64,000 bases of DNA from contig NZ_BCNW01000001.1 of NCBI RefSeq assembly GCF_001571385.1, forward strand, positions 2,209,470-2,273,469, read 5' to 3'. Shown here one piece after another: positions 33,674 through 41,012 of the stretch. The position numbers and the translations under genes were made by a program. Source of the DNA: Methanofollis ethanolicus (GTDB lineage Archaea; Halobacteriota; Methanomicrobia; Methanomicrobiales; Methanofollaceae). Under the pieces are notes generated by a model. That model did no database searches and was not told where the DNA came from. It was given only the letters and a program-made list of their open reading frames with translations. Position 1 is the first letter of the stretch, and every line of letters begins with the position of its first letter.

Positions 33674-34441
33674 TCATTCTGTTTTTTGATCCGCACCCTC
33701 AACCCGACCAGGATGGCTGTAGATGTTCAACTTTCCCCCCCGCGCGAACCCCACCACCGTGAGCCCGGTCTTCTCCGCCGTCTCCACGGCAAGGGAGGTC
33801 GTCGCACCGCGGGAGACGATCAGGGGGATGTTCGCGACAAGACACTTGCGGACCATCTCCGAGGAGATGCGGCCCGACGAGACGACATAGGTCAGGGAGA
33901 AGTCGACGCCGTTCCGGAGGCCGTAGCCGATCACCCGGTCGAGGGCATTGTGCCTGCCGATATCCTCCGCGACCGCGATCACCTTCTCGCGGTCGAGCAG
34001 GGCGACGATGTGGACGCCGCCGGTCGCCGTGTGGATCTCCGAGGTGAGGACCGACTGCACGGCGCCGAGGACCTCGGCGGGCGTGACCGTCAGGTCGGAG
34101 CAGACCGTCGGGAGTTTCTCCGTGTCGATATACGAGACGCTCCCCCCGCAGCCCGAAAGGATCGTCTTCTTTGTCCCGATGGACTTGAACGGGTTCGTCG
34201 TCAGGACGCTCACCCGGTTCTTCTCGACCTTGATCGACTCGATCTCCCCGGGCCCCTTTATGATCTCTTCGGTGAAGAGATAGCCGACGACAAAATCCTC
34301 GAAGTTGCCCGGGCTCATCATCGCAGTCATCGCATGCCTCCCGTTGACGAAGAGGGCCACAGGAAGTTCTTCCACGACGTCGTGAGCGATCGTCTCGAAT
34401 CCTTCGCCGTCAAAACGGATGCAGGGTATTTTTCTGAACAT
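33674..34441 (-). CDS. fdhD: Formate dehydrogenase accessory sulfurtransferase FdhD
   Basis: The 255-residue protein shows FdhD segments: GNFEDFVVGYLFTEEII, GVHIVALLDREKVIAVAEDIGRHNALDRVIGY (two overlapping stretches) and VVSSGRISSEMVRKC. FdhD passes sulfur from a cysteine desulfurase to the molybdenum/tungsten cofactor of formate dehydrogenase. The usual CxxC loop is reduced to SGCGG with one Cys (Cys98); in the E. coli protein the two loop cysteines are important. Divergently next to it (308 bp away) stands a cysteine desulfurase fusion, a plausible sulfur donor. Confidence 0.92.
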   Translation of the reverse strand: MFRKIPCIRFDGEGFETIAHDVVEELPVALFVNGRHAMTAMMSPGNFEDFVVGYLFTEEIIKGPGEIESIKVEKNRVSVLTTNPFKSIGTKKTILSGCGGSVSYIDTEKLPTVCSDLTVTPAEVLGAVQSVLTSEIHTATGGVHIVALLDREKVIAVAEDIGRHNALDRVIGYGLRNGVDFSLTYVVSSGRISSEMVRKCLVANIPLIVSRGATTSLAVETAEKTGLTVVGFARGGKLNIYSHPGRVEGADQKTE

Positions 34442-34749: not shown

Positions 34750-37410
34750 ATGAGTACCAAAGAAATGTATATGGGGCGCGAACCGCCGGTAAAAAAGGTC
34801 CTCTTCTGGTGCGACCGCTGCAATGTCCCCCTGATCGGACAGAAGTGCGGGTGCGGGGCCGAAGGGAAAAAAATCTCTCTCCTCCAGCCCTATGAGGTGC
34901 GCCCCGCGCTGAAAGGGGACATGGACCTCATCACCAGACTCGTGCACGAACAGTTCGGCACCGTCCCCCTTCCCCGGATCATGCTCCTGAACAAGACCGG
35001 CGGGGTCGACCGCGCCGACCTCGTCATCGCGCATGGCGGGCGCTTCGGCTGGCTCACCTTCGACCCCGTGAACCGGCGGTTCACTTTCGACATCGCCCCC
35101 GAGGCACTCCCGTACATCCTCGACCATGCAAGCAAAGGGATCGTCGACCTCGATAGCGTCGCGGCTCCCGGCGAAGTCAGGGGACGGATCGGCGGCAAGA
35201 AGTTCACCCTCACCGTCAATGTCCCCGAAGGGACGGTGATCGTGAAGTACAGGAACAGGTACGGCACCGGCACCGTGAAGGAGGGGCAGATCAGGGTGAA
35301 GGAAGTCGTGACGGTGGAGACACGCAGGCCTGCAAACCCGGACTGGAACGTCGCGATCAGGAAGAACCAGACCCAGCTCAAGAACCTCGAACAGGAAGCC
35401 ATTCGCACCATCCGCAGGCACATGAACGACCGCCCGACGGCGAACATCTCGTTCTCCGGCGGCAAGGACAGCACCGCGGCCCTCCACCTCGCACGCAAGG
35501 CAGGGATCGAGACGGCGTTCTTCATCGACACCGGCATCGAGATCCAGGAGACCCTCGACTTTGTCGCCTCCCGACCCGGCGTCGAGATCATCGAGAAGGG
35601 CGGCGACTTCTGGCAGGCGGTGGAAAAGACCGGGCCGCCCGGCAAGGACAACCGCTGGTGCTGCAAACTCCTGAAACTCCAGCCTCTCAAACTCTACCTC
35701 GCCGGGGTCGGCCCCTGCGTCACCGTGCAGGGCAACCGCTGGTACGAGTCCTGGAACCGTGCGAGCCTTGAAGAAACGAGCCAGAACCCTGCAAACCCGC
35801 TGCAGTTGAACGTCTCCCCGATCCGGGCCTGGCGGGCGCTCGAAGTCTTCCTCTACCTCTGGTGGCAGAAGGTGGAGATCAACCCCCTCTATGATATGGG
35901 GCTCGAACGCATCGGGTGCTTCCTCTGCCCGTCGATGCTGGAGAGCGAATACGAGTTGCTGAGGGAGACGCACCCGGACATGGTTGCGCGCTGGGACGCC
36001 TTCCTCGAAAAATGGGCCGAAAGAAAGGGGCTTCCCGACGAATACTGCCGGTGGGGCCTCTGGCGGTGGCGCGCCCTGCCCCCGAAGATGCGGGAGGTCT
36101 GCAGGGACAGGGGGATCGCCTTCAACGACGACTACAGTGTGCGTGCAACACAAGAGAGGGTCGTGCGGCCTGTCGAAGTCGTCCGGGGAGAAGCAGCGCC
36201 CGGCCCCGCGATCGAAGAGGCGGGATTCCCGGTAGAGAGGATCCGCCGGGACTTCCCGATCCTGGGGGACCTCGTGTACCTCGACAACGCGGCGACCAGT
36301 TTCTCGCCCGAGGCAGTGGTCGAGGCGATGGTCGAGTTCGAGCACAGGTACCGCGCCAATGTCGGCCGGGGCGTGCACCGTCTCACCCAGATCGCATCGC
36401 AGCGTTACTGGCACGCCCATGAGAAGGTGGCCGCCTTCATCGGCGGGAAGGACGGCGTCACGGTCTTCACGAAGAACACCACCGAGGCGGTCAACATGGT
36501 GGCGCAGGGCCTCTCATGGAAGCCCGGCGACCGCGTCGTCACGACTATCCTGGAGCACCACTCCAACCTCCTGCCCTGGACGCACCTGAAGGAGCAGGGC
36601 GTCGAGGTCGTGGTCATACCGGTCAGGCCCGACTTCTCCCTCGACCTCGACGCCTTCAGGGAGGCGGTCGAGGCCGCGCCTCCGCGCCTGGTCGCCGTCA
36701 CCCATGCCTCGAATGTCCTCGGCACGGTCACGCCGGTGGAGGAGATCGCCCGGATCTGCCATGAGCACGGCTCGCTCCTCCTGGTGGACGGGGCGCAGAG
36801 TGTCCCGCACATGCCGGTCGACGTCGCCCGTATCGGCTGCGACGTCTTCTGCTTCTCCGGCCACAAGATGCTCGGGCCGACCGGGACCGGCGTCCTGTGG
36901 ATGAAGGAACCTATCCTCGAACCGACGATGCTCGGCGGCGGCATGGTCGAGGCGGTCACCGCCGACGGCTTCACCCCGGCGGAAGGCTACCAGCAGTACG
37001 AGGCCGGGACGCCGAATATCGGCGGCGGCATCGGGCTCGGTGCGGCGGTCGGGTACCTGGAAAAGATCGGGATGGAGGAGGTCAGGCAATACGAGGAGGA
37101 ACTCACCTCCCGCCTCATCGACGGGCTGAAGGGCATCGAAGGGGTGCACGTCTACGCGGCCGAAGACCCGGCGGCCCGCATCGGGGTGGTCTCCTTCACC
37201 ATCGACGGCCTGCACCCGCACGAGGTCGCGCAGCGCCTCGACGAGGGCGCGGAGATCATGGTGCGGTCGGGGCACCACTGCTGCATGCCGCTCATGGAGC
37301 ACCTCGGCCTCCCCGAGGGGACGGTGCGGGCGAGTCTCGCCCTGTACACCACCAGGCAGGAGGTGGACCTCCTCGTCGCAAGCGTGGCCGAGATCTGCCG
37401 CGGCCTCTGA
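34750..37410 (+). CDS. Zinc/PUA/PP-loop (PAPS reductase-like) fused to a SufS-type cysteine desulfurase
   Basis: The 886-residue protein starts at ATG 34750 (ATG 34765 is possible). It opens with a Cys-rich knuckle (CDRC...CGCG, residues ~18-37). A PUA-like domain follows (~50-120). Next is a PP-loop ATPase of the PAPS reductase family, with SFSGGKDSTAALHLA near 235 and later NRWCCKLLKLQPL and GCFLCPS. From about 495 a complete class V aminotransferase appears: VYLDNAATSFSP, FSGHKMLGPTG (PLP Lys706), and RSGHHCCMP (persulfide Cys844). The desulfurase could hand sulfur directly to the PP-loop domain, as in tRNA thiolation (ThiI/TtuA-like chemistry). In most genomes these are separate proteins. 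Confidence 0.9.
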   Translation: MSTKEMYMGREPPVKKVLFWCDRCNVPLIGQKCGCGAEGKKISLLQPYEVRPALKGDMDLITRLVHEQFGTVPLPRIMLLNKTGGVDRADLVIAHGGRFGWLTFDPVNRRFTFDIAPEALPYILDHASKGIVDLDSVAAPGEVRGRIGGKKFTLTVNVPEGTVIVKYRNRYGTGTVKEGQIRVKEVVTVETRRPANPDWNVAIRKNQTQLKNLEQEAIRTIRRHMNDRPTANISFSGGKDSTAALHLARKAGIETAFFIDTGIEIQETLDFVASRPGVEIIEKGGDFWQAVEKTGPPGKDNRWCCKLLKLQPLKLYLAGVGPCVTVQGNRWYESWNRASLEETSQNPANPLQLNVSPIRAWRALEVFLYLWWQKVEINPLYDMGLERIGCFLCPSMLESEYELLRETHPDMVARWDAFLEKWAERKGLPDEYCRWGLWRWRALPPKMREVCRDRGIAFNDDYSVRATQERVVRPVEVVRGEAAPGPAIEEAGFPVERIRRDFPILGDLVYLDNAATSFSPEAVVEAMVEFEHRYRANVGRGVHRLTQIASQRYWHAHEKVAAFIGGKDGVTVFTKNTTEAVNMVAQGLSWKPGDRVVTTILEHHSNLLPWTHLKEQGVEVVVIPVRPDFSLDLDAFREAVEAAPPRLVAVTHASNVLGTVTPVEEIARICHEHGSLLLVDGAQSVPHMPVDVARIGCDVFCFSGHKMLGPTGTGVLWMKEPILEPTMLGGGMVEAVTADGFTPAEGYQQYEAGTPNIGGGIGLGAAVGYLEKIGMEEVRQYEEELTSRLIDGLKGIEGVHVYAAEDPAARIGVVSFTIDGLHPHEVAQRLDEGAEIMVRSGHHCCMPLMEHLGLPEGTVRASLALYTTRQEVDLLVASVAEICRGL

Positions 37411-40088: not shown

Positions 40089-41012
40089 TTAATCCCGCCC
40101 CCCGTCATGCGAGAGCGGGAAGTACTGCCGATACACGGCCTGCCTCTCGTCGAGATCTGTGTGCAGGTAGATCTCGGTCGTCTTGATGGAGGCATGGCCG
40201 AGGTTCTCCTGGACGACACGGAGGTTCTTCGAGCGCCGGTAGAGTTCAGAGGCATAGGAGTGCCGGATCTTGTGCGGCGTGATGCCGGGAGGGGCGTATC
40301 GCTGGAAAATCCGCTGGACTGTTCTCGGAGAGAGGCCCTTGCCCTGCTGGCCCACGAAAAGAGGCCCCATGATTTTGTTCCCGATATAGTCCTCGACCTC
40401 TGCAAGAGTCTCGTCGTCCACAAACACCGTCCGGATCTTATCGCCCTTGCCCCGCACCCGGATAGTGCCTTCATCAAAGTCAATATCGCCGATGTCGATA
40501 GTACAGAGCTCGGAAACACGGACGCCGGTCGCGTAGATCAACCGCACGATCAGGCGATCGCGCTCGTCTTCGATCGACCGGAGGAGACGCATCACCTGGT
40601 TGTGCTTCAGGTATTTCAGTTCCTGATTCTTGATCCGCGGGCGTTCCACCGCAGGCATCGGATCTGCAGAGACTGCCCCCTGCGCATAGAGATAGGAATA
40701 GAAGGACGACAGCGACGAGATCATGCGATGAAGGGTTTTTGGTTTATAGGCGTGCTGCTCTGCAAGCCAGGTGAAATAATCAGTCACCATCGAGGTGGGC
40801 ACCTCCGCCCGAGTCTGTAGGGAGGCGGGCTTGAAGGCCTGCGCATCGCACATGGGCGACTCGCCCAGAGGAGTGTGCCGGCAGACCCAGACATAGTGGG
40901 CGAAGTGCCGGACTGTTTCTCCATAACTTCTGACAGTCCTGGACGAGTAATTTCGCATTCGGAGGTAATTTTCGAACTTATACAGCCACTCCGAAAAATA
41001 ACCCTTCTCCAT
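40089..41012 (-). CDS. xerA: XerA-type tyrosine recombinase
   Basis: The 307-residue protein has an N-terminal SAM-like core-binding domain and a complete catalytic set: Arg165 (GVRVSELC), a Lys in RGKGDK (~189-192), His247/Arg250 (PHKIRHSYA), His273 (LGHASIKTTE) and nucleophile Tyr282 (IYLHTD). Archaeal XerA resolves chromosome dimers at dif without a partner. A 60-residue insertion-like linker (CRHTPLGESPMC) separates the first helices. Just before its start stands a 26-bp perfect inverted repeat. It could also be an element recombinase. Confidence 0.9.
   Translation of the reverse strand: MEKGYFSEWLYKFENYLRMRNYSSRTVRSYGETVRHFAHYVWVCRHTPLGESPMCDAQAFKPASLQTRAEVPTSMVTDYFTWLAEQHAYKPKTLHRMISSLSSFYSYLYAQGAVSADPMPAVERPRIKNQELKYLKHNQVMRLLRSIEDERDRLIVRLIYATGVRVSELCTIDIGDIDFDEGTIRVRGKGDKIRTVFVDDETLAEVEDYIGNKIMGPLFVGQQGKGLSPRTVQRIFQRYAPPGITPHKIRHSYASELYRRSKNLRVVQENLGHASIKTTEIYLHTDLDERQAVYRQYFPLSHDGGRD

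What the first reader, a model, noticed from the sequence alone, without database searches (positions are those of the whole stretch)
34750..37410. Single-chain sulfur-transfer machine: PUA + PP-loop + SufS-type desulfurase
All catalytic residues are visible in both halves: the PP-loop SGGKDS and Cys pairs, PLP Lys706 and persulfide Cys844. The PUA domain suggests an RNA substrate. A fused donor-acceptor pair would channel sulfur onto tRNA or another AMP-activated target. Methanogens often lack ordinary cysteine desulfurases, which makes a dedicated fusion notable.
Basis: partly seen in the sequence, partly recalled or inferred. Interest (0 to 1): 0.65.

Follow-up and report, generated by a model that had tools for sequence, protein, structure and literature searches.

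The report
Fused sulfur donor and PP-loop enzyme
In one group of methane-making microbes, an enzyme that strips sulfur from cysteine is welded to an ATP-using, probably iron-sulfur enzyme; the weld is real and its steadiest gene partner is a protein that puts sulfur on molybdenum or tungsten cofactors, while what the other half acts on is unknown.

Summary
The ORF is real (34750-37410, 886 aa) and the fusion is not an artefact: at least 135 of 232 genomes of its order carry it in one frame. Catalytic residues of both halves are invariant in 33 of 33 aligned relatives. The architecture is already in print as a "CysH-SufS" fusion confined to Methanomicrobiales (PMC11237513). "CysH" is unlikely: the PP-loop is intact, the CysH catalytic Cys is missing and the genus has no ATP sulfurylase. 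The N-half looks like an ATP-dependent [4Fe-4S] sulfurtransferase; its RNA substrate is unproven and Pfam finds no PUA in it. The halves are separable: the fusion arose once and the SufS half was split off or lost again several times. The SufS half tracks a cysteine-bearing FdhD paralogue: Cys-FdhD occurs in 14 of 15 sampled genomes with this SufS lineage and 0 of 8 without. Best reading: the FdhD-partnered cysteine desulfurase, fused to a second sulfur consumer. Other desulfurases are present in this genome, so the premise of scarcity fails here.

The parts
34750..37410 (+). fusion gene, 886 aa (start possibly ATG 34771)
34810..34854 (+). Cys4 zinc-ribbon-like motif, C21 C24 C33 C35
   Evidence: Cys in 31 of 31 non-gap rows of A1; metal binding inferred
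34867..35319 (+). residues 40-190: N-terminal alpha/beta region, then the place where a paralogue has its PUA domain
   Evidence: hhalign to paralogue over residues 4-134; no PUA hit
35362..35949 (+). residues 205-400: PP-loop ATPase domain of the PAPS-reductase superfamily
   Evidence: Pfam; model pLDDT 90.6; Foldseek/VIA matches to APS/PAPS reductases, TtuA, LarE
35455..35472 (+). PP-loop S236GGKDS241
   Evidence: invariant 33/33
35659..35664 (+). C304 C305, predicted [4Fe-4S] ligands
   Evidence: invariant 33/33; align with the CC of the 2goy APS reductase
35917..35928 (+). C390xxC393, predicted [4Fe-4S] ligands
   Evidence: invariant 33/33; align with GCxxC of 2goy
36145..36234 (+). variable linker, residues about 466-495
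   Evidence: alignment A1; pLDDT under 50 at 469-490
36235..37407 (+). SufS-type cysteine desulfurase domain, residues 496-886
   Evidence: TIGR01979 422 bits; phmmer to 5b7s E 8.7e-105
36865..36867 (+). K706, PLP lysine
   Evidence: invariant 33/33
37279..37281 (+). C844, persulfide cysteine
   Evidence: invariant 33/33
33674..34441 (-). FdhD, divergent neighbour; Cys-bearing paralogue
   Evidence: TIGR00129 207.5 bits, cut-off 140.9; motif and tree
34148..34150 (-). FdhD C98 in SGCGG
   Evidence: Cys in 38 of 38 members of this FdhD clade, absent in 18 of 18 of the other clade

Best explanation
The protein is a two-module sulfur hub. The C-terminal half is the SufS-lineage cysteine desulfurase that in relatives is a separate gene beside a cysteine-bearing FdhD; it makes a persulfide on C844 with PLP on K706 and most likely passes sulfur to FdhD for sulfuration of the Mo/W-bis-pyranopterin cofactor of formate (and perhaps formylmethanofuran) dehydrogenases. 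Early in Methanomicrobiales it was fused behind a second sulfur user, a zinc-ribbon/PP-loop enzyme with four APS-reductase-type cysteines, which most likely activates an unknown acceptor with ATP and thiolates it through a [4Fe-4S] cluster, as TtuA/NcsA and [4Fe-4S] LarE do. Shown: fusion, intact residues, one origin, separability, FdhD linkage. Inferred: desulfurase activity, transfer to FdhD, cluster, ATP use, acceptor.
For: Invariant catalytic residues. Four Cys align with the Fe-S Cys of APS reductase; fold matches include TtuA with an Fe-S cluster and [4Fe-4S] LarE. SufS-domain tree: fusions plus the two split pairs form one group of 34 rows (SH-aLRT 97), with separate SufS genes of the same order outside it. 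FdhD lies directly downstream of 19 of 35 separate SufS genes and of the fusion in L049, L050, L053, L054, and within the held flanks of 12 of 32 fusion loci, in differing orientations. FdhD forms two clades: Cys in 38 of 38, no Cys in 18 of 18. Cys-FdhD is present in 14 of 15 genomes with the SufS lineage and 0 of 8 without (inputs 71, 90, 95; Fisher 1.8e-5, species not independent). PMC10609526 (passages): M. [quoted passage not shown] PMC12140954 (passages) and PMC6239281 (passages): E. coli IscS-FdhD interaction.
Against: G154 carries the split N-half/SufS pair but only a Cys-less FdhD. Two genomes with only a distant SufS homologue (G128, 43%; G156, 48%) were left out of the count: G128 has no FdhD, G156 only a Cys-less one; with them it is 14 of 17. 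20 of 32 fusion loci show no FdhD in the held flank; in G157 and G043 the Cys-FdhD is not adjacent to the fusion. PMC6239281 reports that FdhD's CXXC Cys are not essential for active FDH. PP-loop plus four Cys does not prove an Fe-S cluster or thiolation. The full-length model has pTM 0.63, so no contact between the halves is predicted.
Confidence: 0.55

Rival explanations
1. Single-chain tRNA thiolation enzyme: the SufS half hands its persulfide to the PP-loop half, which thiolates a tRNA base bound through the N-terminal domains.
For: PP-loop fold close to TtuA; zinc-ribbon Cys and a region that aligns with a paralogue whose following segment is a true PUA; fusion kept across six families.
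Against: No PUA detectable in this family. ThiI and an NcsA-like enzyme, the usual s4U8 and s2U34 enzymes (roles recalled), are encoded elsewhere in the genome. N-half retained without the SufS half in G110, G111, G119, G129.
Confidence: 0.3
2. Assimilatory sulfate reduction enzyme: CysH (APS/PAPS reductase) fused to SufS, the label given in PMC11237513.
For: PAPS_reduct domain; APS-reductase Cys pattern; published annotation.
Against: Intact ATP-binding SGGKDS in 33/33, where the 2goy APS reductase reads SFSGAED; no conserved Cys about 25 residues after C393, where APS reductase has its catalytic Cys (position recalled; Cys columns in 85); no ATP sulfurylase in 12 of 12 genomes of the genus; no CysD-like gene among the 4 PF01507 matches of the genome.
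Confidence: 0.04
3. The SufS half is simply the housekeeping desulfurase for SufBC iron-sulfur assembly; the fused half is its client or is incidental.
For: A SufB/D-type gene is present, and the fusion holds the only SufS-lineage domain among the 10 PF00266 matches in this genome.
Against: FdhD, LarE and Moco genes were seen beside this SufS lineage (SufBC was not among the probes, so its absence there is untested). Four genomes of the genus and G111, G119, G129 live without this SufS.
Confidence: 0.1

Closest known systems
'CysH-SufS' fusion, cluster 536 of PMC11237513 (mSystems 2024)
   Same: same architecture, only in Methanomicrobiales, a few split cases
   Different: labelled there as assimilatory PAPS reductase; no function, Fe-S Cys, FdhD link or phylogeny in the passages read
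SufS of Thermococcus onnurineus (5b7s)
   Same: closest solved desulfurase by sequence, 44-45% identity, aligned end to end
   Different: no N-terminal PP-loop module
IscS-FdhD relay of E. coli
   Same: desulfurase partnered with FdhD for bis-MGD sulfuration (passages)
   Different: SufS-type instead of IscS; FdhD here has one loop Cys (SGCGG) instead of CXXC; desulfurase fused to another enzyme
TtuA/NcsA and [4Fe-4S] LarE sulfurtransferases
   Same: PP-loop ATPase fold; Fe-S cluster in the solved forms
   Different: different Cys pattern and accessory domains; not fused to a desulfurase
NCBIfam PRK13795 family (NF010366-NF010369)
   Same: N-half matches over 15-465, 394 bits
   Different: below the model's cut-off of 745; C-terminus replaced by SufS

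Membership tests
SufS cysteine desulfurase (TIGR01979) | PLP Lys, persulfide Cys, active-site EHH | tested here: met
   K706, C844, E602 H603 H604 invariant 33/33; aligned with 5b7s. Roles of residues recalled.
SufS cysteine desulfurase (TIGR01979) | score above the curated cut-off 475.1 | tested here: not met
   422.1 bits; another fusion (L040) 447.6
APS/PAPS reductase (CysH) | four Fe-S Cys (APS reductase type) | tested here: met
APS/PAPS reductase (CysH) | catalytic Cys in the C-terminal ECG(L/I)H segment (motif recalled) | tested here: not met
   no Cys column within 57 residues after C393; next is C451, 30 of 33
APS/PAPS reductase (CysH) | source of APS/PAPS in the cell | tested here: not met
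   no PF01747 in 12 of 12 genomes; no CysD; novel enzymes not excluded
PUA RNA-binding domain (PF01472) | match to the family model | tested here: inconclusive
   no match in 26 of 27 N-halves; hhalign probability 0.4 against five PUA domains; region is collinear with a paralogue's PUA and no fold search of it alone was possible
[4Fe-4S] PP-loop sulfurtransferase (TtuA/LarE kind) | intact PP-loop ATPase motif | tested here: met
[4Fe-4S] PP-loop sulfurtransferase (TtuA/LarE kind) | bound cluster and thiolation activity | not testable with these tools
   needs anaerobic protein
PRK13795 (NF010366) | score above cut-off 745 | tested here: not met
   393.9 bits
FdhD sulfurtransferase (the neighbour) | score above cut-off and loop Cys | tested here: met
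   207.5 against 140.9; SGCGG; one Cys, not CXXC

The most novel reading that the evidence does not exclude
A branched persulfide hub: one desulfurase active site feeds both a dedicated cysteine-bearing FdhD (Mo/W cofactor of CO2/formate enzymes) in trans and an ATP-dependent [4Fe-4S] thiolase, perhaps acting on RNA, in cis, so that cofactor maturation and a new thiolation share and compete for one sulfur source.
Probability: 0.25. Interest if true: 0.75.

Novelty: new variant of a known kind. Interest (0 to 1): 0.48.

Why it matters
The fusion itself was catalogued in 2024 as CysH-SufS, so its existence is not new. What would be new is that the label is probably wrong and that the SufS half has a dedicated partner: in this order a cysteine-bearing FdhD comes and goes with this desulfurase while a second, cysteine-less FdhD mostly stays. 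Sister species with and without the pair give a natural test of whether FdhD's loop cysteine is a sulfur-transfer residue, a point on which the papers read disagree. The N-half is one of three paralogues in the genome, from an archaeal family for which the paper searches made here turned up no assigned function.

Tried and rejected
Rejected: frameshift or assembly join. CysH function. Fusion outside the order: in 392 genomes of the phylum (83 of the order, 309 others) every match spanning both halves was in the order (E <= 1e-100; match list cut, but sorted by score).

Led nowhere: a DNA pattern for PP-loops in the own genome (fewer matches than its reversed control); paper searches for PRK13795, arCOG00073/COG0175 (52), PUA with PAPS reductase, LarE with FdhD. 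Profile comparison of the N-terminal region with five PUA domains failed, but those profiles are shallow. Fold search of the full model returned only cysteine desulfurase or selenocysteine lyase chains in the 50 rows shown; no PUA structure appeared in the 50 rows shown for the N-half, where the PP-loop domain fills the list. Promoter/terminator scan uninformative (bacterial patterns).

Limits: gene calls in flanks used a home-made codon score, not a published gene finder. Trees are quick ones, SH-aLRT only. The 25 genomes were picked by their SufS/N-half state, not by FdhD; species are not independent; G091 and G093 of the genus (81% and 88% complete) were not among them. In one search not every second FdhD of each genome was read (e.g. 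that of G087). G128 and G156 were dropped from the 14/15 v 0/8 count as explained. The order-wide count is a lower bound; many genomes are fragments.

Full report
What is there. The window lies in a 2.71 Mb archaeal genome. The genus is probably Methanofollis: genome G094, of the same genus, shares a contig of identical length with a record titled 'uncultured Methanofollis sp.'. ORF 34750-37410 encodes 886 aa. Pfam sees a PAPS-reductase-type PP-loop domain and a class V aminotransferase domain; NCBIfam sees PRK13795 over 15-465 and SufS over 497-882.

Conservation. 60 ORFs with both halves were in the held loci (some are the same contig seen twice). In 33 aligned, S236GGKDS241, C304, C305, C390, C393, the EHH of 602-604, K706 and C844 are invariant, and the linker varies in length. 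The zinc-ribbon-like C21, C24, C33, C35 are Cys in 31 of 31 rows that reach that far. AlphaFold gives pLDDT 90.6 and pTM 0.89 for the N-half alone and pLDDT 84.6, pTM 0.63 for the whole, with a disordered linker, so no fixed arrangement of the halves is predicted.

Range. In the order, 129 of 232 genomes have one match spanning both halves (rows counted by me, check), plus 6 read as single frames after piecewise matches (L121-L124; L180 and L183). All six families have it; within the window's own genus only 4 of 12 genomes do. Among 309 other genomes of the phylum none showed a match spanning both halves. A 2024 survey of archaeal fusions already lists this protein: cluster 536, CysH with SufS, exclusively Methanomicrobiales, unfused gene sets in four assemblies (PMC11237513; passages only).

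Not CysH. The profile of 27 N-halves aligns with the APS reductase 2goy so that C304-C305 and C390/C393 fall on its CC and CxxC. But the nucleotide loop is the intact SGGKDS where 2goy reads SFSGAED; no conserved Cys follows where the reductase has its catalytic Cys (position recalled); ATP sulfurylase is absent from 12 of 12 genomes of the genus, with 5 of 14 control genomes ringing; and the genome's only PF01507 matches are the fusion, two paralogues and the NcsA-like gene. Foldseek and VIA place the domain with APS/PAPS reductases, FAD synthase, TtuA with an Fe-S cluster and LarE. An ATP-dependent [4Fe-4S] sulfurtransferase is the most economical reading; it is an inference.

PUA. Only 1 of 27 N-half rows hits Pfam PUA; it is the third paralogue of this genome, as the genome search at L186 and the NCBIfam scan show. 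The fusion's place is not among 6 PUA matches in the genome at E <= 1. Profile comparison aligns the region with that paralogue over residues 4-134, up to where the paralogue's PUA begins, but not with five PUA domains.

History. The SufS-domain tree (70 rows) puts the 32 fusion rows and the two adjacent split pairs in one group (SH-aLRT 97); separate SufS genes of the same order lie outside it, then those of Methanotrichaceae and ANME-type lineages. In G154 the two halves are separate genes 5 bp apart, and in G067 also adjacent. The N-half tree shows SufS-less N-halves nested among fusions in several places (L117/L119, L176/L177, L178), so the donor half was lost repeatedly. The single-contig genomes G111 and G119 keep the N-half without any SufS of this lineage, having only desulfurase-like matches about 31-33% identical. 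Conversely G085 and G087, of the window's genus, keep a separate SufS followed by FdhD.

Neighbours. In 32 fusion loci the held flanks contain ThiM 15, ThiE 13, FdhD 12, LarE 5, MoeB 5, MoaE 5, NadA 5, MoaD 4, NcsA 2 (names by NCBIfam, except MoaD, named by position and sequence only). FdhD directly follows the fusion in four. Of 35 separate SufS genes (L067-L103, >50% identity), 19 have FdhD directly downstream on the same strand, several with LarE directly upstream. In the window FdhD is divergent, 33674-34441.

The FdhD test. I searched 25 genomes, chosen by SufS/N-half state, for FdhD: 24 have one or more. Reading the loop showed two clades (56 proteins, support 100): one with SGCG or GCGCG-type Cys in 38 of 38, coming from SufS or fusion loci and genomes, and one with Ser, Thr or Ala there in 18 of 18. 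By genome: Cys-FdhD in 14 of 15 with the SufS lineage (exception G154) and 0 of 8 without. The eight without are G086, G088, G090, G095, G110, G111, G119, G129; four of these keep the fusion-type N-half, so Cys-FdhD follows the SufS half, not the N-half. Fisher p is 1.8e-5, but species are not independent; within the genus alone it is 6 of 6 against 0 of 4. A review notes that M. [quoted passage not shown] another study finds the E. coli loop cysteines helpful but not essential and C121 stimulating IscS (PMC6239281, passages).

Premise check. The genome also encodes a NifS-type enzyme next to IscU, another NifS-type next to IscU, and a TIGR01977-type enzyme (IscU named from position and sequence), so desulfurases are not scarce here. 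PMC8351635 (passages) reports SufS in 30 of 32 Methanomicrobiales.

Verdict. The fusion is real, ancient within the order, with conserved catalytic residues on both sides, and already catalogued. The most likely role of the SufS half is persulfide supply to a dedicated FdhD; the N-half is a probable ATP-dependent Fe-S sulfurtransferase of unknown acceptor. Physical coupling may favour one client but is dispensable. I mark it a new variant of a known kind (desulfurase plus sulfur-accepting partner) because the partner and the probable chemistry differ from the published label; the architecture alone would be 'already known'.

Noticed in passing
L168:5251-6705 (own genome C1 about 2031250-2032700); L184; L185: The second, SufS-free N-half paralogue sits at the grpE-dnaK-dnaJ heat-shock genes in three genomes read (gene names from sequence only); why a PP-loop enzyme keeps this company is unexplained.
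   Followed up: partly
L167 (own genome C1:830000-846000): A sulfur island without the fusion: TIGR01977 desulfurase, small ORF, ThiM- and ThiE-like genes, NcsA-like PP-loop enzyme, NifS, IscU-like, MoeB/ThiF-like and MoaE-like genes.
   Followed up: partly
L214 (G043:C1:229409-230788): One open frame of 511 aa holds two FdhD matches in tandem, apparently a fused FdhD pair; its loop Cys is absent in the part read.
   Followed up: no
L093, L095, L096, L070, L072, L092: LarE-SufS-FdhD runs on one strand in Methanothrix-type, ANME-1-type and some Methanomicrobiales records, suggesting LarE draws on the same sulfur source.
   Followed up: partly
L064:450-3527: The linker between the halves is expanded to more than 100 residues of a Gly/Thr/Ala-rich repeat.
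   Followed up: no
L104-L116: Woesearchaeota and Pacearchaeota SufS homologues (40-46% identity) often lie next to IscU-like and NcsA-like genes; no FdhD was seen there.
   Followed up: no
window 40089-41012: A gene that reads like a tyrosine recombinase (XerC/D type by eye) lies 2.7 kb downstream.
   Followed up: no
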